From: Candidatus Latescibacterota bacterium
Lineage (GTDB): Bacteria > Latescibacterota > UBA2968 > UBA8231
Reading direction: 5' to 3'
Length of the DNA stretch: 35,123 nt
Assembly (NCBI GenBank): GCA_003529325.1
Contig: DPVW01000292.1
Coordinates: 14,070-49,192, forward strand
Made by a program: the position numbers and the translations under genes. Every line of letters starts with the position of its first letter. Position 1 is the first letter of the stretch. The notes beneath the pieces are model-generated. The model did no database searches and was not told where the DNA came from. It saw only the letters and a program-made list of their open reading frames with translations. Below are positions 25,464 through 35,123 of the stretch, one piece after another.

Positions 25464-26645
25464 ATGGCGACCATTACCGACGGCAAGAAGCGCATCCCCT
25501 TCATGCGGGGCATGCTCGTGCACCATCTGATCCAGCGTGGCTTCGACCATGACGAAGCCTACCAGCTGGCGGATGAGGTGCGCGGCGAATTGCGTGAGCG
25601 CAAGAATGTCGATCGCGAGGAGATTCTCGAACTCATCGGCAGTCTGCTGGCACGCGATCACGGGAATCGGATCGTAGGGGATCTCGTGTTCTGGGAGCGC
25701 GCGCCGACGACGATTCGGGTTACGCGCAAGAGTGGCTCCCGGCCCTTTTCCAAAGAGCTGCTATCCCATTCGATCCAGGCTTCAGGGCTGCCTCCGGAGG
25801 CGGCCTACTCACTGGCACAAAGTGTTGAGAGCCGGCTCGTGCAGGAGCGCAACACCGACATCGACCACGAACAACTCGAGGCGGTGGTCGAAGAGGTATT
25901 GCAGCAGAAGCACGGGCACAACTACGCTCAGCGTTATCGCGTGTGGCGAGCCTGGGGCAATCTCGACAAACCTCTCATCATCCTCATCGGCGGTGCCAGT
26001 GGTGTCGGCAAAACGACACTGGCTGTCAGCCTGGCGAATCTACTCGACATCCCCAAGGTCGTCGGGACCGACGACATTCGACAGATCCTGCGTCTGACTC
26101 TGACGGCTGACTTCATGCCCGCCATCCATACTTCATCCTATCGCGCCTCGGAAGCGATCCCGGAGTCGAGTCTGGTCGGTCCGGATCCCGTCATCGCCGG
26201 ATACCGGGAGCAGTCCAGCGTCGTCGGCGTCGGCGTGCGTGCGATCATCAGCCGCTGTGTGGAAGAAAACACGAGCGTGATCATCGACGGTGTGCACCTG
26301 CTGCCTGGCTTCATCGACCTGTCCGCTTTCGACAAGAAGGCCATCATGGCGCCCCTCAGCCTCGTGGTCACCGAGCGCGAAGCCTACGAGGAGCGTTTCG
26401 ACAAGCGCGCTTCGCAGGCACCGGTGCGGGGCGCACACAAATATCTGGATCATCTCGACCAAATCTTGACGATCCAAGACCATATCCTGCACTGCAGCGA
26501 AGAAGCGGATGTGCCCACCATCGATGTGACCGCCGTCGAGGATCCGACGAGTGCCGCAGTTACGCTGGTGGCAGAACGCCTGCAACAGGAGAAGGAGATC
26601 CGCTCCGCGATGCGGAGTAGCGGCAAGGACAAGAAGAAGCGCTAG
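25464..26645 (+). CDS. 2-phosphoglycerate-kinase-like protein with two ATP-cone domains
   Basis: A 393-residue protein with two helical ATP-cone-like regions (about 9-63, with PFMRGMLVHHLIQRGF, and 84-157, with RPFSKELLSHSIQASG) and then a P-loop kinase domain: Walker A GGASGVGKTT (176-185) and GTDDIRQILR after it. This layout resembles archaeal 2-phosphoglycerate kinase, which makes 2,3-bisphosphoglycerate, the precursor of cyclic 2,3-bisphosphoglycerate. The ATP-cone may sense nucleotide level. No partner cyclase is in the window, so the product and role here are unknown. The C-terminus is a Lys/Arg-rich tail (SGKDKKKR). The Shine-Dalgarno is weak. Confidence 0.75.
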   Translation: MATITDGKKRIPFMRGMLVHHLIQRGFDHDEAYQLADEVRGELRERKNVDREEILELIGSLLARDHGNRIVGDLVFWERAPTTIRVTRKSGSRPFSKELLSHSIQASGLPPEAAYSLAQSVESRLVQERNTDIDHEQLEAVVEEVLQQKHGHNYAQRYRVWRAWGNLDKPLIILIGGASGVGKTTLAVSLANLLDIPKVVGTDDIRQILRLTLTADFMPAIHTSSYRASEAIPESSLVGPDPVIAGYREQSSVVGVGVRAIISRCVEENTSVIIDGVHLLPGFIDLSAFDKKAIMAPLSLVVTEREAYEERFDKRASQAPVRGAHKYLDHLDQILTIQDHILHCSEEADVPTIDVTAVEDPTSAAVTLVAERLQQEKEIRSAMRSSGKDKKKR

Positions 26646-26662: not shown

Positions 26663-26744
26663 CTCGCGGAGGGCCGTTCTATATTGAACCAGACCATGAT
26701 CGCTTTTTTTGACCCAACCAACACCTGAGATCGCAGACAACTTC

Positions 26745-27224
26745 ATGCTGGGGAAAAAAGACAACGGCAATGTCGCCGGAAATGGCCAGACTCTCAATAC
26801 CATCATCGGACGTGGTACGGTCTTCGAAGGTGTAATGAAGGTCGACAACAGCGTCCGCATCGATGGCACCTTCAAGGGAGAGCTGACCTGCTCTGGTGCG
26901 CTGACAATCAGCCAGTCGGGTGAAGCCTACGCTCATCTCGAAGGGCGTGACATCTACATCAATGGCATCGTTCGCGGTACCGTCCGCGCCGAGAAGGTCC
27001 GGCTCGACAGTCAGGCCCGTTTTATCGGCGACGTTTACGCTACTGCCCTGTCGGTGTCGGAGGGGGCGATTTTCCACGGCAGTTGCTCGATGGAATCAGT
27101 GGCGAGCGAGATCGAAGACAGCAGCAAACGCGACGGTTCCGTCATCCCCATGGATGGCAAACTCAAGGAGATCGCCCCGGTGCTCGAATCGACGTCTGAG
27201 GAGGCCCGCGCAGCCAGCAGCTGA
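26745..27224 (+). CDS. Bactofilin
   Basis: Polymer-forming cytoskeletal protein of the bactofilin family, which assembles into filaments at the membrane and scaffolds cell-shape or envelope processes. The 159-residue protein has the short unstructured start, then the beta-helix core beginning NTIIGRGTVFEGVMKVDNSV, RIDGTFKGEL, GEAYAHLEGRDIYINGIVRG and IFHGSC, with the six-residue repeat period of Gly and hydrophobic residues. It ends in a charged tail. Start is ambiguous: ATG 26745 is preferred as the first ATG in frame, but TTG 26709 would add 12 residues; neither has a clear Shine-Dalgarno. Confidence 0.88.
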   Translation: MLGKKDNGNVAGNGQTLNTIIGRGTVFEGVMKVDNSVRIDGTFKGELTCSGALTISQSGEAYAHLEGRDIYINGIVRGTVRAEKVRLDSQARFIGDVYATALSVSEGAIFHGSCSMESVASEIEDSSKRDGSVIPMDGKLKEIAPVLESTSEEARAASS

Positions 27225-27436
27225 ATAGCGGATCGGCGCAACCGACCCTCCACCGGAATATCCTGCACCCGCACCCAAAGCGGGGTCGTTCTCTTTATCT
27301 TTCTTCAAGTCCCAATAAAACAACAAGTTAAATCCTATGAGCGGCGCCAAATCGGCGGCGTGTCGACCATGGTATGTCCTTTGCGTTTCTCGGGTATGCG
27401 TTCTTCCGAACGTCCTCTCCGACCCGGGTAAAGATC

Positions 27437-28155
27437 ATGCCGACACCGCGTCTCAATCATAACTCCCACCTGAAGAGTGTGCATCGATCGATGGCGGTGC
27501 ACCAAGCGGATATGAGTCGGCAGATCGGTATGTTGTCCTCCGGCCTGCGTATCAACAGGCCCAGCGATGATCCCGCCAGTGTGGCCCTGGCAATGCAGGG
27601 AGCCAGCTCGGTCTTCAGCGACGTGGATCGACTCAGCATCAACTCCGAATTCAACGAGTTGCGCGCCGAGGTCGACCGTATTGCCAGCGCCACTGTGTAC
27701 AATGGGCGCCAGCTGCTCACCGGTGGCAATAACCTGGAGGGCAGAACTCTGATCGTCGAGGAGAATGATGGCCTCAGTTTTCAGGTAGGCCCTTCCGAGA
27801 CGAGCAACGACGTCAGCCGTGTCGGCATCCGCGACATGCGGGCGACGGGTCCCAATCTCGATCTCGGCAACCTGTCGATCGTCAGTCGAATCGATGCACA
27901 AAACTCTCTGATGACGCTGGCACACGCAATCGAGACGGTATCCGGGGAGCGCAATCGACTGGGTGCCTTCCAGAACCGCCTGCAATTGAGTATCTCCACG
28001 AGTGAGAACGTGATGCGGAGTCAAGAATCCGAGAGGTCGATGTGGCCCGGGCGGCATCGCAGCTGATCCACTCGCAGATTCTGTCACAGGCAGCCACGAG
28101 CATTGCCAGCCGTGCGGATACGGACATCGATCAGATTCTCACCTTGCTGCGTTGA
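27437..28155 (+). pseudogene. Flagellin pseudogene (internal deletion and frameshift)
   Basis: The N-terminus (NHNSHLKSVHRSMAVHQADM, LSSGLRINRPSDDPASVALA) and the C-terminal motif ESRIREVDVARAASQ...QILTLLR are classic flagellin D0/D1 ends. Two defects are visible. First, about 55 residues expected after ALAMQ (roughly 27600-27625), the conserved D1 helix around LQRMRELAVQ, are missing, the sequence jumping to FNELRAEVDRIA. Second, a one-base deletion at 28016-28018 shifts frame: frame 0 ends in a short unrelated tail at 28066, while the next frame supplies the true end at 28155. No other flagellar genes are in the window. A sequencing error could explain the frameshift but not the deletion. 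Confidence 0.8.
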
Positions 28156-28162
28156 TGGCCGG

Positions 28163-29164
28163 TTACAAGTAGAGCAGGTAGAAGCGAAGATCCGGATAAA
28201 CCCGCACCGCCGGTGCGGGGAGGCGCAGCCAGATCAGCTGTTGCTTGAAGTGCTCCCATAACCATCCCCCCGCAGGCAATTGACGCGCGTCGTAGTCGAG
28301 GGAGAGCAGGAACTCGGGGTGTGCCGACGGCAGGTCCGGATACTCTCGTTCCCGCCCGCGGCTCTTGACGTTGGCACCATGCATGCCCTTCGTCCCATAA
28401 CCGACGGCGAATCCGAGCCAGTCGGGCCAGCTTGATTGTAAGCGCGCGGGGAGCATGGGTTCTACGGCCAGGGTGAGCCAGACCGTCATGCCCTCGTAAT
28501 CGTCAATCGCATAGCGTGTGCTGGGCAAGTCGGCGGCGCGACGTCTGTCGTAGTTGCGATACTGCGATGAGGGCCAATAGCTCAATTTGAAACCCACAGC
28601 CTGGGTTCGTGGCCATAACGTATGCACAAGGGGAATCGAGGCTCCCGCCGTGTTGGCGAGGAAGTCGGGTATGGAGAAGCCCCAGTCGGCGTAGTAGGCG
28701 TCGCGCATCTCCACCTCGCAGAGCACCGCCCAGCTCACCGCCGCGCCAAGACCGGCAGCCGCATTTGCACCCAAACCACTCCAACGAAAGGCGTCCCCTA
28801 CATTTCGCGACAGGAACATGCCACCGATAAAGTGACCCCCCTTGTCCAGATGCAGATAGGTGTCGCCGGACCAGTCACGGAGCCAGCGGATCGACTCCTG
28901 CTTCTCGCCCTGGTACCAGGCGCGATCGAAATAGGTGAACCCCGCCCAATGCACGACGGCACCGCCGGCTCCCACCGTGGCCAGTCGATCAAGGCGCACA
29001 CCCTCTGGATCAGCGACAATGGCTGCATCCCCCCAGGCTGATACCGTCAGCAACAGGGAGAGCAGGAATGCCTGCAGCCAATGCCCCGATGTGGGTGTTA
29101 CGGAACTTGTTGGCGCCACCGCACGTCTTGCCGGGGGAGGGCTCCGCATCTGATTGGCTTTCAA
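28163..29164 (-). CDS. DUF2279-type envelope protein
   Basis: A protein of up to 333 residues whose family signature is HLDKGGHFIGGMFLSR followed by CEVEMRDAYYADWGFS and IPDFLANTAGA, typical of DUF2279 (YfiM-like) proteins of unknown function. An N-terminal hydrophobic segment (about 29-45) is a signal peptide or anchor, preceded by a long basic region. The C-terminal half has alternating aromatic beta-strand-like pattern and ends in YLLYL, suggesting an outer-membrane or periplasmic location. Start TTG 29164 has GGAG 8 bases upstream; ATG 29149 is an alternative. It is divergent from the sensor kinase with 79 bases between, and convergent with the flagellin remnant (7 bases). Confidence 0.7.
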   Translation of the reverse strand: MKANQMRSPPPARRAVAPTSSVTPTSGHWLQAFLLSLLLTVSAWGDAAIVADPEGVRLDRLATVGAGGAVVHWAGFTYFDRAWYQGEKQESIRWLRDWSGDTYLHLDKGGHFIGGMFLSRNVGDAFRWSGLGANAAAGLGAAVSWAVLCEVEMRDAYYADWGFSIPDFLANTAGASIPLVHTLWPRTQAVGFKLSYWPSSQYRNYDRRRAADLPSTRYAIDDYEGMTVWLTLAVEPMLPARLQSSWPDWLGFAVGYGTKGMHGANVKSRGREREYPDLPSAHPEFLLSLDYDARQLPAGGWLWEHFKQQLIWLRLPAPAVRVYPDLRFYLLYL

Positions 29165-29243: not shown

Positions 29244-31112
29244 ATGACGATACCACCTTTATCCCCTCTTGAATCTGCTGCTGCTGCTGACGATGCCGCG
29301 CCGCGCCGCCGTCGTCGCCGCACGGATGGCCCGATGGAGTCGCCGGGACCCGTACCGACTGTCCCAAGGGGGAACCAGACTGGGGACCCGTTGGGGGACC
29401 TCCAAGTTGGAGGTAGGTATGACGGTAGTCGTCGGGCGGGTGGTCTGCGCTCTCTGGCACCAAAGGCCTGGGGTCTGTCGCCGACGTTTCGAGTGTTTCT
29501 GTTCCTTGGTGGAATCCTCGGCGTCATGGCGTTCCTGCTATACAACGAATACGTCATCCAGCAGTTCCATGATCAGGAGCGCGTGCGGGCAAATCTCTAC
29601 GCCAATCTCTACGGCCTGGCCATTTCTGAAGGACTGCCCTCGAAGATTTCAGAGCAAATCTTCGACAACATCATCCTCGATGAGAGAGAGGACATCATCC
29701 CCAATGAGAGGATCTCCTTCCCACTCATCGTCACCGACTACCGCGGCCGGATCAACAGCTGGTCAGGTCAAGGTCTTCCGGCCCAGGCCGACAGTGCAGC
29801 TACGGAAGAGGTGCTGACCATCGTGGGCGAGGTGATGGCAAATATGGACGCCGTCAACGAGCCGGTCTCCGCCTCATGGAGCGATCGGGCCAGTGTGCGT
29901 GTGTACCAGCAGGGCGAGGATCTTGTCCTCGTCGATCCCGACGGTTATGCCATCGCCTGGAGTGGCGCAGGCATGCCGGCAGGGACGGATACGACAGATC
30001 GCCTGATGGCTGAGTCGCAGATGCAGAGGCTGCGTGCCGCCGACATTCAACCCACCGTGTTCCACGTCTCCACCGACTCGCTGAATCACCTCGTGAGCTC
30101 CGGCGCAAACTATGCGATATCGAGAGGCGGCAAGGTCATCGCCTGGGGGGGACCTTCGCTGCCGACATTTGTCGAGATCGATCCTCCGAGTGTCGAGGCG
30201 CAGGCTCTGTACGATGGCATCGCTGCCACGACAGAACCCTTCGCCTTTCGTGTCCAGAACGAACAGCTCATTCACTACGGGGATACAGAGCTGATGAGCC
30301 GCATCTCGGTGGCGCCCTTCGTCACGATCGGCGTCTTGTTGCTGTTCGTCGTCATCGGCTGGGTCGGGTCACGCAACATCCGGCGTAGCGAGCAGCGGTC
30401 GATCTGGGTGGGTATGGCGAAGGAGACCGCCCACCAACTGGGCACACCACTCTCCTCTCTGTCCGGTTGGCTGGAGCTGATGACGGGCCGTGTGCGCGAC
30501 CTGGTCACAGCCGACAAAGATGAGCGTGAGAGGGCGGCGTCGGCGGTAGATGATGTGGTGCGCGAAATGTCACAGGATATGGGCCGCTTGAACCAGATCG
30601 CCTCCCGCTTCAGCCAGATCGGTTCTGTGCCTGAATTGAAGCCGGCAGACGTGCGCGACGTCCTGCGAGAGACGGTTCGCTATTTCGAGGGTCGAGGACC
30701 GCAGTTCGGCCGCCACGACTTCGACCTCGAACTGGCGACGGTGCCCCTCGTGCCACTGAATGCCGAGTTGATGGGCTGGGTCTTCGAGAATCTGTTCAAA
30801 AATGCGATCGACGCCATGGTGCAACAGGAGGGCTGTATCCGGGTGACCACCAACTATGACGACGAGCGTCGCCGGGTGCGTATCGTCGTGGCGGACAATG
30901 GCCGGGGCATCGATGCGGAGAATCTCGCTCGCGTGTTCCAACCCGGTTTCAGCACCAAGAAGCGCGGCTGGGGTCTGGGCCTCGCCTTCGTCCGTCGCAT
31001 CGTCGAAGAGTACCACGGCGGCTATATTTACATCCCCCGTTCCGAACCGGGCGCGGGTACGACGTTCGAGATCAGCCTGCCAGCTCGAACCGAGATCCTG
31101 AAAGAGACATAA
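29244..31112 (+). CDS. Membrane sensor histidine kinase (PorX partner candidate)
   Basis: A 622-residue kinase: Arg/Pro-rich cytoplasmic N-terminus (1-80), transmembrane helix 1 (about 83-100), a large extracytoplasmic sensor domain (101-355), helix 2 (about 356-375), then HisKA with the phospho-acceptor H397 in AKETAHQLGTPLSSL and the ATPase domain with N-box FENLFKNAIDAM (N520), G1 DNGRGI (551-556) and G2 GWGLGLAF (575-582). The sensor domain carries three similar short segments with G...WSG..P (about 166-180, 232-245, 294-307). ATG 29244 has no clear Shine-Dalgarno and the low-complexity start leaves ATG 29334 possible. It is separated from the PorX-like gene by 3 bases and is very probably its cognate kinase. 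Confidence 0.9.
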   Translation: MTIPPLSPLESAAAADDAAPRRRRRRTDGPMESPGPVPTVPRGNQTGDPLGDLQVGGRYDGSRRAGGLRSLAPKAWGLSPTFRVFLFLGGILGVMAFLLYNEYVIQQFHDQERVRANLYANLYGLAISEGLPSKISEQIFDNIILDEREDIIPNERISFPLIVTDYRGRINSWSGQGLPAQADSAATEEVLTIVGEVMANMDAVNEPVSASWSDRASVRVYQQGEDLVLVDPDGYAIAWSGAGMPAGTDTTDRLMAESQMQRLRAADIQPTVFHVSTDSLNHLVSSGANYAISRGGKVIAWGGPSLPTFVEIDPPSVEAQALYDGIAATTEPFAFRVQNEQLIHYGDTELMSRISVAPFVTIGVLLLFVVIGWVGSRNIRRSEQRSIWVGMAKETAHQLGTPLSSLSGWLELMTGRVRDLVTADKDERERAASAVDDVVREMSQDMGRLNQIASRFSQIGSVPELKPADVRDVLRETVRYFEGRGPQFGRHDFDLELATVPLVPLNAELMGWVFENLFKNAIDAMVQQEGCIRVTTNYDDERRRVRIVVADNGRGIDAENLARVFQPGFSTKKRGWGLGLAFVRRIVEEYHGGYIYIPRSEPGAGTTFEISLPARTEILKET

Positions 31113-31115
31113 AGA

Positions 31116-32684
31116 GTGACGGAATCGACCAACCATAAGATCCTGTGGGCAGATGACGAGATCGATCTGCTACGTTCCCATCACATGTATCTGAACGAGC
31201 GGGGTTACGACGTGACGCCTGTCAGTAATGGCGAGGATGCCCTGGCCCTGTTGCAGCAGGAACACTTCGACATCGTCCTGCTCGACGAGATGATGCCTGG
31301 TCTAGATGGATTGTCAACGTTGGAGCAGTTGAAAGAGCGCGACCCGAATGTGCCCGTTATCATGATTACAAAAAATGAAGAAGAGCGCCTCATGAACGAG
31401 GCTATTGGGCGGCGCATCGATGACTACCTGACAAAGCCGGTGAATCCGAGTCAGATCTTCATGGCTTGCAAGAAGATTCTTGATGCGAGGCAGATCCGGC
31501 AAAGTCAGGCGGGCCAGGCCTACGTGTCGAAGTCGAACCAGATCCGTGCCTGGCTCGCCGGTGACATGACCTGGCGCACGTGGATCGACGTGCACCGCCT
31601 GTTATCTGAATGGGATATCGAAATCAGTCGTATCGGTGACCGCGCTCTGCAGCAGATGATCGAGGACCAGCGCAAAGAATGTAATCACGAGTTCGGCCGT
31701 TTCGTCGAGCATAACTATCCCACGTGGATCGCCAGCGAGAAAGACTCGCCTCCGCTGTCGGTGGACGTTGTGCCCGAACGGGTCGCGCCCCTGCTGCAGC
31801 AGGGCAAACAGGTGTTCTTCATCGTCATCGACTGTCTGCGTCTGGACCATTGGATGATCCTCGAGCCGATGGTCTCCGAGTTCTTCAATGTGCGCCGCGA
31901 CTACCACTACTCCATTCTACCCACGGCGACACCCTACTCGCGCAATGCCATTTTCTCCGGCCTGTTTCCACTGGAAATCTCCAAGAAGTACAAGGACCTC
32001 TGGTCGCACAGCGGCAAGGATGACGAGCACAGTCTCAACCGCCACGAGCACAAATTTCTCGATGACCAGATCGCCGATCTAGGCATTGAGTTGAAGGGCG
32101 ATTCACGCTATGTGAAGGTCATCGACACCGCCGAAGGCCAGGCTCTGGCGCGGAAGGCGGATGGCATGGGTAATGTGCCACTCGTCGGGGTGGTGTACAA
32201 TTTTCTCGACATGCTCGTTCACGGTCGCTCGCACTCCGAATTGCTCAAAGAGATCGCTCCGGACGAGAGTGGTTTTCGCTCTCTCGTGCTGTCGTGGTTT
32301 GAACACTCGTCGTTGTTCGAGCTACTCAAGCGCCTGTCGCGCACCGATGCGACGGTGGTGATCACCACCGACCATGGCGCCGTCCGTGGTGGCCGGGCGA
32401 CGATGGTGCACGGGGATCGGCAGACCTCTACGAGTCTACGCTACAAACATGGCAAGAATCTTCGCGTCGACTCCAAGGACACCCTGTTGATCACCGAACC
32501 CGAAAAGTGGGGTCTGCCAAGCACGGGGCTAGGCTCAAACTATATCGTCGCCAAAGAAGACTTCTACTTCGTCTACCCGACAAATTTCAATGAATATCAG
32601 CGGCAGTACAAGGACAGCTTTCAGCACGGGGGTATCTCCTTGGAGGAGGTCGTACTGCCGGTGATCACGCTGGAGGCCAAATGA
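31116..32684 (+). CDS. porX: PorX-like response regulator with PglZ/alkaline-phosphatase domain
   Basis: 522 residues from GTG 31116. Residues 7-125 are a receiver domain: acidic D13/D14, phospho-acceptor D57 (LLDEMMPG), T85 and K107 (YLTKPVN). A helical middle (125-220) leads to an alkaline-phosphatase-superfamily PglZ domain with metal-site segments FFIVIDCLRLDHW (D239), ILPTATPYSRNAIFSGL (Thr nucleophile 270 or 272), VVITTDHGA (D419, H420) and FQHGGISLEEVVLPV (H504). This is the architecture of PorX, the regulator of the type IX secretion system in Porphyromonas, whose PglZ domain is reported to cleave cyclic oligonucleotides. It overlaps tsaE by four bases. Identity with the PorX family is confident; a link to type IX secretion is not shown here. 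Confidence 0.92.
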   Translation: MTESTNHKILWADDEIDLLRSHHMYLNERGYDVTPVSNGEDALALLQQEHFDIVLLDEMMPGLDGLSTLEQLKERDPNVPVIMITKNEEERLMNEAIGRRIDDYLTKPVNPSQIFMACKKILDARQIRQSQAGQAYVSKSNQIRAWLAGDMTWRTWIDVHRLLSEWDIEISRIGDRALQQMIEDQRKECNHEFGRFVEHNYPTWIASEKDSPPLSVDVVPERVAPLLQQGKQVFFIVIDCLRLDHWMILEPMVSEFFNVRRDYHYSILPTATPYSRNAIFSGLFPLEISKKYKDLWSHSGKDDEHSLNRHEHKFLDDQIADLGIELKGDSRYVKVIDTAEGQALARKADGMGNVPLVGVVYNFLDMLVHGRSHSELLKEIAPDESGFRSLVLSWFEHSSLFELLKRLSRTDATVVITTDHGAVRGGRATMVHGDRQTSTSLRYKHGKNLRVDSKDTLLITEPEKWGLPSTGLGSNYIVAKEDFYFVYPTNFNEYQRQYKDSFQHGGISLEEVVLPVITLEAK

Positions 32685-33184
32685 CGGTCGCCGTTGAGCC
32701 CGTCTCTGCGGTGGGCGAGTTCCACCCGGCGAGCGCCAGCGACACTGCGCGTCTGGGGCTGCGCCTCGCCGCGGCACTGAAACCAGGGCATCTGGTCGCA
32801 CTCAGTGGTGACCTTGGCGCCGGCAAGACGTGTCTGATACAGGGCATCGCCGAGGGACTTGGGGTGACGGATATCGTCAACAGCCCGACCTTTGTTCTGC
32901 TCAATCTCTACGCTGGCGAAGACGCCACGGGAGGGGAGTTGACGGTCTATCATTTCGATCTGTATCGCCTTGGTTCGGGCGAGGAACTCGAAGACATAGG
33001 GGGTATCGAGTTTTTCGCAGACCCCCACGGGGTGAGCCTGGTGGAGTGGGCGGACCGTATGCCTGAAGTATTACCGGAGAGTCGCTGGGAGGTCTGCCTC
33101 GAGCACGGTACGACGGCAGATGAACGCTTGATCCGCTGGCGGCATCTCGTCGCAAAAAAAGTCCATGGAAGGGAGATCGCGTGA
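32681..33184 (+). CDS. tsaE: tRNA threonylcarbamoyladenosine biosynthesis ATPase TsaE
   Basis: Small P-loop ATPase that drives the TsaBD complex in making the t6A modification of ANN-decoding tRNAs. The 167-residue protein has Walker A SGDLGAGKTCLIQGIAEGLG (43-50 core), NSPTFVLLNLY, YHFDLYRLG and LVEWADRMPEVLP, all family signatures. Its start overlaps the PorX-like stop (ATGA) and its own stop overlaps the next start (GTGA), placing a housekeeping gene tightly inside a signalling and outer-membrane operon. No tsaB or tsaD follows. Confidence 0.95.
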   Translation: MTVAVEPVSAVGEFHPASASDTARLGLRLAAALKPGHLVALSGDLGAGKTCLIQGIAEGLGVTDIVNSPTFVLLNLYAGEDATGGELTVYHFDLYRLGSGEELEDIGGIEFFADPHGVSLVEWADRMPEVLPESRWEVCLEHGTTADERLIRWRHLVAKKVHGREIA

Positions 33185-33975
33185 GTGCAGCAGGGAGGGG
33201 CCGTCGTCTGACGGCATGTGTCCTGGCGACGCTGTGCCTGCAGCCAGCCATGACGTTGGCGCAGAGTACACCCGCCGCAAGTGCCGCTGGTGAGTTGGTC
33301 CGCCTCATCGATAGTCCCACAGCAGGACTGGTCGACAAGGGTCGTTTTGCCGTTGATTTGCGTCTGTTTCCCGAAGGTGGTCTCGTCGGTCAATTGCACG
33401 CCGGCATCATGCGGCGATTGACGATCGGCCTGTCTTTTGGTGGCGAAAGTGTCATCGGCAACGATCCCATCGACTGGTATCCACGGGTGGAGGCGGCGGC
33501 ACGTTATCGGGTTCTGGAAGAGAGTGAGGCCTTTCCCGCTTTGGCCCTGGGCTACGAGACCCAGGGATATGGACCTCGGTTTGCACAACGGTATCAGGTC
33601 AAGTCGAAGGGGTTCTTCGTTGCGGCGAGCAAGAATTACATCTCCGGCTTCGGCCAGTTCGGGCTGCATGGCGGCATCAACTGGAGCCGAGAAAGCGAAG
33701 ATGATGACGGCCCAAATGGCTGGGCCGGTGTCGATAAGCGGATCAATGAAGAACTGTCAGTGGTCGCCGAGTATGACTTCGCCATCAATGATAACGACGA
33801 CGATTCCCTCGGTTCGGGCCGGGGGTATCTGAATGCCGGTGCCTACTGGTCTCCGGCTCAGGGCTTGGGTCTGGGTTTTCTGTTGAGGAACGTCCTTGAG
33901 AACGGAGACGAGTCAGGAGTTGTAGATCCGGACATGAGTCGTGAACTCTCGGTGCGCTATACGGAGATGTTTTAA
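33181..33975 (+). CDS. YjbH-like outer-membrane beta-barrel protein
   Basis: 264 residues with a signal peptide (basic start RGRR, hydrophobic core, cleavage near LAQS, residues 26-29). The mature part is a continuous pattern of amphipathic strands ending in a strand with terminal aromatic (RELSVRYTEMF), as in outer-membrane barrels. Phrases such as IDSPTAGLVDKGRFAVDLRL, FGGESVIGNDPIDWYPRVE, KSKGFFVAASKNY and AEYDFAINDND resemble a conserved hypothetical family of the FCB group related to YjbH exopolysaccharide proteins (recollection, not searched). GTG 33181 overlaps the tsaE stop by four bases. Function unknown. Confidence 0.72.
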   Translation: MSAAGRGRRLTACVLATLCLQPAMTLAQSTPAASAAGELVRLIDSPTAGLVDKGRFAVDLRLFPEGGLVGQLHAGIMRRLTIGLSFGGESVIGNDPIDWYPRVEAAARYRVLEESEAFPALALGYETQGYGPRFAQRYQVKSKGFFVAASKNYISGFGQFGLHGGINWSRESEDDDGPNGWAGVDKRINEELSVVAEYDFAINDNDDDSLGSGRGYLNAGAYWSPAQGLGLGFLLRNVLENGDESGVVDPDMSRELSVRYTEMF

Positions 33976-33977
33976 CT

Positions 33978-35123
33978 ATGACAAAGTCCCTGGTAGTCCT
34001 CGTCCTGTTGGCGGCGGTACCTGCAGCCACCCAGGAGGAGCGTGCCATCGGCAACTTCGGCGGCCTCGGCGTGCGTGCCATGGGTATGGGCGGAGCCTAT
34101 GCCGGCGTGGCGGACGATTTTACCGCCGTATTCTGGAACCCGGCAGGTCTGGCTCAGATGCAGCGGCGCGAGGTGTATGTCGCTTTTCTGCGCAATGCGA
34201 AAGAGAATTCAGCCACCGCTGGAAGTGGCACTGCCACGCAGACCTCGGCGATGGCGGATGTGAGCAACACACGCTTCGGCTCGCTGGGGTTTGTCTATCC
34301 ATTTCCCGTCTACCGCGGGGCCTTTGTCCTGGCAGCAGGATTCAATCGTGTGAAGGACTTTGACTGGGGCCTGAACAGGACCGGTTTTGTCGACAGCCTT
34401 ACCGTCAACGATTCGTTCCGGCACGAAGGTGACCTGTCGATTTCCTCCGTCGCCGCCGCCGTCGACGTCTCTCCTTCGGTGTCGCTGGGTGTGACGTTGA
34501 GTCTAATCTCGGGGATGGACGAGTCGACAACCCAGTACGAGTCCGTCGACACTGAGGACTATTTTGACCAGCGCCGTTTCCTCGACAAAGCGTCCTTCGA
34601 AGATGACTACGAGACGACCTGGACAGCAACGCTTGGTACGATGATGAGGTCACCCGGGGTCAACCCCAAGCTGCGTATCGGCGCGACGATCACCACGGGC
34701 CCGACACACAAGGTGGGTTTTACCTATCGTGCGCCGCCGGATACGGCTTTCTCCCTTGTCGAGTTCGACGATGGTCGTGTTGTCAGCGCACGGAGCCTCG
34801 ATATCGACGGCAGCTACAAGATCGACCTGCCCCTGTCCTTCGCTGTCGGCGGCGCCTACAGACCAGTACCCCATCTCCTGCTCGCCGCCTCAATGCATGC
34901 CACGGAGTGGACGCAGACGGAGTATGCGGATGAGGACAACTTCCAGCTACGCACGGGCACCTCTTTTGAGGATCAATACGACGATATTCTGCGATATCAT
35001 CTCGGTATCGAGTGGCAGGTGCCATGGTTGGCCCTCGATGTCCGGGGGGGATACTACACCGATCCACTGCCGTTCATCGGACCCCGTGACCCGAATCTCA
35101 TCGTCGATCCAGAGACGAACCCG
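33978..35123 (+). CDS. PorV/FadL-like outer-membrane protein (3' end beyond window)
   Basis: The frame is open from ATG 33978 to the window end (382 codons, no stop). After a signal peptide (SLVVLVLLAAVPAATQ) comes GVRAMGMGGAYAGVADDF and AVFWNPAGLAQMQ, the characteristic N-terminal plug region of OmpP1/FadL and PorV-type barrels, followed by long amphipathic strands. In type IX secretion PorV shuttles cargo at the outer membrane; FadL transports hydrophobic compounds. The sequence alone cannot separate these two roles. It starts two bases after the YjbH-like stop, as the fifth gene of the kinase-PorX operon. Only the N-terminal part can be judged. Confidence 0.85.
   Translation, partial: MTKSLVVLVLLAAVPAATQEERAIGNFGGLGVRAMGMGGAYAGVADDFTAVFWNPAGLAQMQRREVYVAFLRNAKENSATAGSGTATQTSAMADVSNTRFGSLGFVYPFPVYRGAFVLAAGFNRVKDFDWGLNRTGFVDSLTVNDSFRHEGDLSISSVAAAVDVSPSVSLGVTLSLISGMDESTTQYESVDTEDYFDQRRFLDKASFEDDYETTWTATLGTMMRSPGVNPKLRIGATITTGPTHKVGFTYRAPPDTAFSLVEFDDGRVVSARSLDIDGSYKIDLPLSFAVGGAYRPVPHLLLAASMHATEWTQTEYADEDNFQLRTGTSFEDQYDDILRYHLGIEWQVPWLALDVRGGYYTDPLPFIGPRDPNLIVDPETNP

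What the first reader, a model, noticed from the sequence alone, without database searches (positions are those of the whole stretch)
29244..35123. PorX-type two-component system in one operon with tsaE and two outer-membrane proteins
Kinase, PorX-like regulator, tsaE, YjbH-like barrel and PorV/FadL-like barrel are separated by 3, -4, -4 and 2 bases. In Bacteroidetes porX and the kinase porY are generally unlinked to each other and to porV (my understanding). Physical linkage here suggests that the kinase is the PorX partner and that the two barrels are outputs or targets. All catalytic positions of the receiver and PglZ domains appear present. It may be an ancestral or non-type-IX version of this envelope signalling system.
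Basis: partly seen in the sequence, partly recalled or inferred. Interest (0 to 1): 0.7.

Follow-up and report, generated by a model that had tools for sequence, protein, structure and literature searches.

The report
PorX and PorY in one operon
In an uncultured Latescibacterota bacterium, the sensor and the regulator of a switch known from gum-disease bacteria, where it controls protein export, sit side by side in one operon, which helps to show that the two are old partners across a whole group of bacterial phyla.

Summary
In detail: five genes with spacings 3, -4, -4 and 2. The regulator is a true PorX (678.9 bits, cut-off 300) with the phospho-acceptor and all seven zinc/catalytic residues. 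The kinase is of the PorY family: its core profile finds one kinase in 301 of 395 Bacteroidota genomes, 298 of which also have PorX; in a Porphyromonas-like genus it finds a solitary kinase, in two genomes with PorY's published 395 residues and His193. Kinase and PorX distances co-vary (r 0.94; 0.78 with TsaE removed). PorX-TsaE adjacency runs across FCB lineages; the two barrels were found beside porX only in this phylum, so they are not general outputs. 'Non-type-IX' is contradicted: SprA in 61 of 64 phylum genomes, type A sorting domains in 64 of 64, own genome included; in nine of 74 other FCB loci sprA directly precedes porX. The GldM motor model found nothing in the 64. Best reading: a linked PorXY system acting on a type-IX-like exporter; which motor it uses, if any, is open.

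The parts
29244..31112 (+). PorY-family sensor kinase, 622 aa: helices about 81-99 and 354-372, periplasmic region of about 254 aa between them, phospho-acceptor His397 in the motif ETAHQLGTP
31116..32684 (+). PorX: receiver domain (Asp57) and PglZ effector (D239, T272, D365, H369, D419, H420, H504)
   Evidence: NF052313 678.9 bits, cut-off 300; alignment to solved PorX chains read against the residue list in PMC11320123
32681..33184 (+). TsaE, tRNA t6A synthesis ATPase; overlaps porX by 4 bases
   Evidence: TIGR00150 109.3 bits, cut-off 60.1; adjacent to porX in 58 of 58 phylum loci and 57 of 71 others
33181..33975 (+). 264-aa predicted 12-strand outer-membrane barrel of no named family
33978..35123 (+). 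FadL/OMPP1-type barrel, cut off by the contig end (382 codons seen; complete relatives are about 440-455 aa)
   Evidence: PF03349 44.1 bits, cut-off 29.7

Best explanation
This is a PorXY two-component system whose sensor and regulator share one operon. Shown by sequence: a two-pass membrane kinase of the PorY family lies directly before a PorX with an intact phospho-acceptor and zinc site, and the same genome carries the SprA translocon and dozens of type A sorting domains. Inferred from published PorXY work: the enlarged periplasmic region senses an envelope condition, His397 is phosphorylated and passes the phosphoryl group to PorX Asp57, and this changes the dimer state or the zinc phosphodiesterase activity of PorX, which tunes export of sorting-domain proteins through SprA. 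TsaE is a housekeeping neighbour kept beside porX across FCB lineages. The two barrels are later additions of this phylum, probably co-transcribed, and need not be targets.
For: PorX identity and intact sites. Linkage conserved in the phylum. One kinase per genome tracks PorX over 395 Bacteroidota genomes: 298 with both, 4 PorX only, 3 kinase only, 90 neither, by reading the two lists against each other. The profile finds PorY-sized solitary kinases in a Porphyromonas-like genus, 395 aa with the histidine at 193 in L228 and L229, as published for PorY. Distances co-vary beyond the TsaE control. SprA and sorting domains in the same genome; SprA over cut-off in 47 of 50 further PorX genomes; sprA directly before porX in nine of 74 other loci (one confirmed).
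Against: No experiment. GldM was not found in the phylum (0 of 64) or, over cut-off, in 49 of 50 other PorX genomes, so the exporter may not work as the known one does. L055 has PorX and the kinase but no SprA match. The kinase is not adjacent in four phylum loci whose PorX frame is intact (L149, L153, L157, L160). The window's own SprA is in pieces on a contig with masked bases. Sorting domains also resemble FlgD domains. The 395-genome survey is not corrected for relatedness.
Confidence: 0.72

Rival explanations
1. The PorXY pair here controls the outer-membrane barrels or another envelope task and not type IX export, a non-type-IX version of the system.
For: The barrels share the operon; GldM was not detected; L055 has PorX and the kinase without SprA.
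Against: SprA in 61 of 64 and sorting domains in 64 of 64 genomes of the phylum; the barrels are absent beside porX in all 64 and 59 other loci that could be judged; sprA directly precedes porX in nine other FCB loci.
Confidence: 0.13
2. porX and the kinase only ride with tsaE, a housekeeping gene, and their adjacency carries no functional message about their pairing.
For: TsaE is the most constant neighbour of porX: 58 of 58 and 57 of 71 loci.
Against: Kinase and PorX keep one-to-one co-occurrence where they are far apart and co-vary beyond TsaE (partial 0.78 against 0.33 and 0.25).
Confidence: 0.08
3. The kinase serves another response regulator and PorX is phosphorylated by something else.
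For: The kinase catalytic fold is ordinary, and pairing with other regulators was not examined.
Against: 27 of 30 PorX genomes have one kinase at 254-324 bits, while no other full-length match in those 27 passes 128 bits; co-occurrence in 298 of 395; PorY-to-PorX phosphotransfer is published (PMC4800418, passages).
Confidence: 0.03

Closest known systems
PorX/PorY two-component system of Porphyromonas gingivalis (PGN_1019 / PGN_2001)
   Same: PorX equivalog with the same receiver and PglZ residues; kinase of the same family, two helices and the same HQLGTP phospho-acceptor motif.
   Different: Linked in one operon with tsaE and two barrels, while porX and porY lie apart in P. gingivalis. The periplasmic region is about 254 aa with three WxGxx(L/M)P motifs, against a loop of about 115 aa in PorY.
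Type IX secretion system of Bacteroidota
   Same: SprA translocon and type A sorting domains in the same genome.
   Different: No match to the GldM motor model in 64 phylum genomes; the other parts were not tested. Latescibacterota is not among the phyla that PMC11285876 lists as possible hosts (passages).
BREX phosphatase PglZ (NF033449)
   Same: Shares the PglZ domain (119.8 bits).
   Different: Far below that model's cut-off of 250, and here fused to a receiver domain.
PorV/PorQ and BamG barrels, for the fifth gene
   Same: Same FadL-like superfamily by partial matches.
   Different: Below every cut-off: PorV_fam 39.5 of 90, BamG 48.9 of 250.

Membership tests
PorX | NF052313 equivalog over 300 bits | tested here: met
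   678.9 bits over residues 8-522
PorX | Receiver Asp and seven zinc/catalytic residues | tested here: met
   D57; D239, T272, D365, H369, D419, H420, H504, by mapping the alignments on the residue list in PMC11320123
PorX | Zinc-dependent phosphodiesterase activity | not testable with these tools
   Enzyme assay needed; published for the F. johnsoniae protein (passages)
PorY | Member of the kinase family that includes PorY | tested here: met
   The profile of window-type kinases matches 25 of 26 genomes of a Porphyromonas-like genus at 229.7-257.8 bits; in L228 and L229 the kinase is 395 aa with His193 and two helices, as published. That the genus is Porphyromonas is inferred
PorY | One-to-one occurrence with PorX | tested here: met
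   298 both, 4 PorX only, 3 kinase only, 90 neither, of 395; not corrected for relatedness
PorY | Phosphotransfer to PorX | not testable with these tools
   Biochemistry needed
Type IX secretion system | SprA/Sov translocon | tested here: met
   TIGR04189: own genome 502.8 bits with neighbouring pieces, cut-off 200; 61 of 64 in the phylum; 0 of 14 controls
Type IX secretion system | C-terminal sorting domains on cargo | tested here: met
   TIGR04183: 50 matches in own genome (75 of 79 candidates scored), 64 of 64 genomes over cut-off, 1 of 14 controls over cut-off
Type IX secretion system | PorM/GldM motor | tested here: inconclusive
   TIGR03517: 0 of 64; positive control Pedobacter 355.4 bits, 1 of 50 over cut-off; a divergent motor could be missed
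Type IX secretion system | PorL, PorK, PorN, PorU | not tested
PorV/PorQ family (gene at 33978) | NF033709 over 90 bits | tested here: not met
   39.5 bits; three relatives 36.8, 54.7 and 56.0; the window copy is truncated
BamG (gene at 33978) | NF053685 over 250 bits | tested here: not met
   48.9 bits; relatives 39.4 to 54.2
FadL/OMPP1 family (gene at 33978) | PF03349 over 29.7 bits | tested here: met
   44.1 bits
YjbH-like barrel (264-aa ORF) | Match to a YjbH family model or fold | tested here: inconclusive
   No Pfam or NCBIfam match; best folds FapF and other barrels
TsaE | TIGR00150 over 60.1 bits | tested here: met
   109.3 bits
BREX PglZ | NF033449 over 250 bits | tested here: not met
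   119.8 bits

The most novel reading that the evidence does not exclude
PorXY, SprA and sorting domains are the conserved core of an export system across the FCB group, and this core exists without the GldLM rotary motor. PorX would first have acted on the translocon or its cargo through its zinc phosphodiesterase, and its CheY-like docking on PorL would be a later Bacteroidota addition.
Probability: 0.25. Interest if true: 0.8.

Novelty: new variant of a known kind. Interest (0 to 1): 0.55.

Why it matters
PorX is needed for type IX secretion in P. gingivalis (PMC11320123 abstract), yet how it acts is disputed, and in that organism its kinase gene lies elsewhere on the chromosome. The linked arrangement and the one-to-one survey are independent evidence for the pairing, point to the kinase in about 300 sampled Bacteroidota genomes, and supply linked natural pairs for biochemistry. 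If the motor is really absent outside Bacteroidota, docking on the PorL motor cannot have been the original job of PorX, which makes that question testable.

Tried and rejected
Rejected: 'non-type-IX'. Rejected as memberships: PorV and BamG for the fifth gene. Set aside: TsaE as a specific target, because the adjacency is spread over FCB lineages; in other lineages genes of the size of TsaB and RimI often follow it (sizes; those names are recalled, not tested).

Rows dropped or miscounted at first: the kinase label on L023 was a false hit, a 1584-aa hybrid protein. The 30 genomes were picked because one search showed no linked kinase; L019 does have one, and in L018 and L034 the contig is too short upstream to tell. 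In one search, L133 counts as a miss although one search shows the kinase there, because its PorX frame is split by a stop. Six phylum loci (L115, L120, L158, L160, L161, L166) repeat named loci; the named copies were left out of the 'other' group, and the phylum copies out. The first tally missed some genes because of how ORFs were chosen and was replaced.

Failed or weak: the first distance test sliced the kinase wrongly and gave a negative correlation; it was redone as and one search is discarded. The fold comparison of the kinase covered only its catalytic part, so the fold of the sensor region is undetermined. Literature: no paper held both Latescibacter* and 'type IX secretion', none held both PorX and tsaE; the eight of 63 papers listed did not hold PorX. 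The library lacks most subscription journals. Papers were seen as passages or listings, and one section of PMC5005315 in full.

Full report
What is there. The five genes lie exactly as described: kinase 29244-31112, PorX 31116-32684, TsaE 32681-33184, a 264-aa ORF 33181-33975 and a FadL-type gene from 33978 to the window end. The contig (C70, 49,192 bases) ends at the window's last base, so the last gene is incomplete. The nearest named relatives are Latescibacterota. Several genomes of the tool's 'same phylum' group have contigs whose lengths equal those of records titled Latescibacteria or Latescibacterota. The phylum is inferred from that.

The regulator is PorX. It scores 678.9 bits on the PorX equivalog model, cut-off 300, and aligns end to end with solved PorX chains. 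Mapping the printed alignment on the residues named for the F. johnsoniae protein (PMC11320123, passages seen) gives Asp57 as phospho-acceptor and D239, T272, D365, H369, D419, H420 and H504 for the zinc and catalytic site. All eight are identical.

Gene order. I compared 60 loci of the phylum and 74 named loci of other lineages with profiles grown from the window's own genes. In the phylum the kinase is directly upstream in 51 of 56 loci with room to tell, TsaE directly downstream in 58 of 58, the 264-aa ORF follows in 42 of 55 and the FadL-type gene in 19 of 51. In the other lineages the counts are 16 of 70, 57 of 71, 0 of 64 and 0 of 59. The kinase-PorX pair is thus spread over several lineages (among the 16 are records titled Zixiibacteriota, Poribacteria, Krumholzibacteriia and Ignavibacterium), PorX-TsaE is the commonest link, and the barrels are local. 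That argues against the barrels as the general output. One relative of the 264-aa ORF in the protein database bears the name Candidatus Aminicenantes, so its reach may be a little wider or the label wrong.

The kinase is PorY. A profile of 18 linked kinases (A2) found a strong match in 27 of 30 PorX genomes, 254-324 bits. In those 27 no other full-length match passes 128 bits; one has a further partial match of 177 bits. The other three genomes reach only 121 to 182 bits. P. gingivalis PorX and the kinase profile were then run over the same 395 Bacteroidota genomes: PorX in 302 (E up to 1e-100), the kinase in 301 with one match each (E up to 1e-42). Reading the two lists against each other gives 298 with both, four with PorX only (G327, G472, G488, G505), three with the kinase only (G370, G417, G476) and 90 with neither. 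The survey is not corrected for relatedness. Where the cut match lists show both places, I saw no adjacent pair; at least six pairs lie about 10-12 kb apart (G178, G182, G194, G263, G287, G362).

To tie the family to PorY, I found a genome whose PorX is 79% identical to the P. gingivalis chain (G591) and searched its genus: 25 of 26 genomes have a strong match (229.7-257.8 bits), one has only 74.5 bits, and one has a second weak match of 76.3. In L228 and L229 the kinase has 395 aa, the motif histidine at 193 and hydrophobic segments near 15-35 and 156-174. PorY is described as 395 aa with membrane segments 14-36 and 149-173 and His193 (PMC5005315, section 17 read). No receiver domain was found in the fetched flanks (about 1.5 kb each side at most) of 26 loci, 25 of that genus and one of Pedobacter, which fits the published 'orphan' status. 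The genus name is inferred.

Co-variation. Over 58 loci with all three genes, distances correlate at 0.94 for kinase-PorX, 0.85 for kinase-TsaE and 0.84 for PorX-TsaE. The partial correlations are 0.78, 0.33 and 0.25, and 0 of 500 permutations reached the kinase-PorX value.

Type IX context. SprA is over its cut-off in 61 of 64 genomes of the phylum, the window's included (502.8 bits with neighbouring pieces), and in 0 of 14 controls. Type A sorting domains are over cut-off in 64 of 64, with 50 matches in the window's genome (75 of 79 candidates scored); 1 of 14 controls is over cut-off. Two tails from the window's genome have TIGR04183 as the only model over its cut-off, with weaker FlgD matches. 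SprA is over cut-off in 47 of 50 further PorX genomes; two with Poribacteria titles fall below it and L055 has none. In nine of 74 other loci sprA directly precedes porX (L017, L020, L022, L025, L029, L030, L034, L037, L039), and in none of the 60 loci of the phylum; L025 was confirmed with Pfam. [quoted passage not shown] Latescibacterota is not in that list, and a search for both terms found no paper.

The missing motor. The GldM model found nothing in 64 genomes of the phylum. Among 50 other PorX genomes it passed its cut-off only in Pedobacter, the positive control (355.4 bits); L055 gave 49.6 bits. In P. gingivalis PorX binds PorL of that motor (PMC5005315, passages). Either the motor is too divergent for this one model, or PorX works here without it. 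That is open.

Sensor and barrels. The window kinase has about 254 residues between its hydrophobic segments, against about 115 in PorY. They hold three copies of a short WxGxx(L/M)P motif. Copies 1 and 2 align at score 54, above all 500 shuffles; 1 and 3 at 36 (0 of 500); 2 and 3 at 37 (3 of 500). Of 55 aligned members 21 have three copies, 29 two and 5 one. The predicted kinase core is an ordinary histidine kinase. The 264-aa ORF has 406 relatives; the 120 listed carry no Pfam domain. Its modest model is a 12-strand barrel whose best matches are FapF chains.

How it most likely works. Shown: the genes, their residues, their linkage, the co-occurrence, and SprA and cargo signals in the same genome. 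Inferred from published PorXY work: autophosphorylation, transfer to PorX, zinc phosphodiesterase output and control of secretion. Unknown: the signal, the natural substrate of the phosphodiesterase, the motor, and whether the barrels or TsaE respond.

Noticed in passing
28163-29164 (-): A DUF2279 gene (38.3 bits) is divergent from the kinase, about 80 bases away. In 12 related loci an ORF of 319-378 aa sits in the same place and orientation (L114, L118, L119, L122, L126, L127, L129, L131, L132, L133, L136, L139); those were not tested for the domain.
   Followed up: partly
27374-28066 (+): A 230-aa ORF matches only the N-terminal flagellin domain (57.1 bits), short for a flagellin.
   Followed up: no
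25464-26645 (+) and 26709-27224 (+): An ATP-cone protein with weak P-loop matches, followed by a bactofilin (47.7 and 87.9 bits).
   Followed up: no
L058 6032-8659: In a record titled Neomarinimicrobiota the gene directly before porX encodes a CHASE2 domain and a nucleotide cyclase domain; L067 has an 874-aa ORF in that place (not tested). This may hint at nucleotide signalling beside the phosphodiesterase.
   Followed up: partly
L253-L259: sprA of this phylum is often flanked by two divergent ORFs that look to me like LptF/LptG permeases (read by eye, no search made).
   Followed up: no
L055 (PXUA01000012.1): This genome has PorX and the kinase but no SprA match, and only a weak GldM match: an exception, or an incomplete assembly.
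   Followed up: no
G178, G182, G194, G263, G287, G362 (places): In at least six Bacteroidota genomes porX and the kinase are not adjacent but lie about 10-12 kb apart on one contig, a spacing that looks conserved.
   Followed up: no
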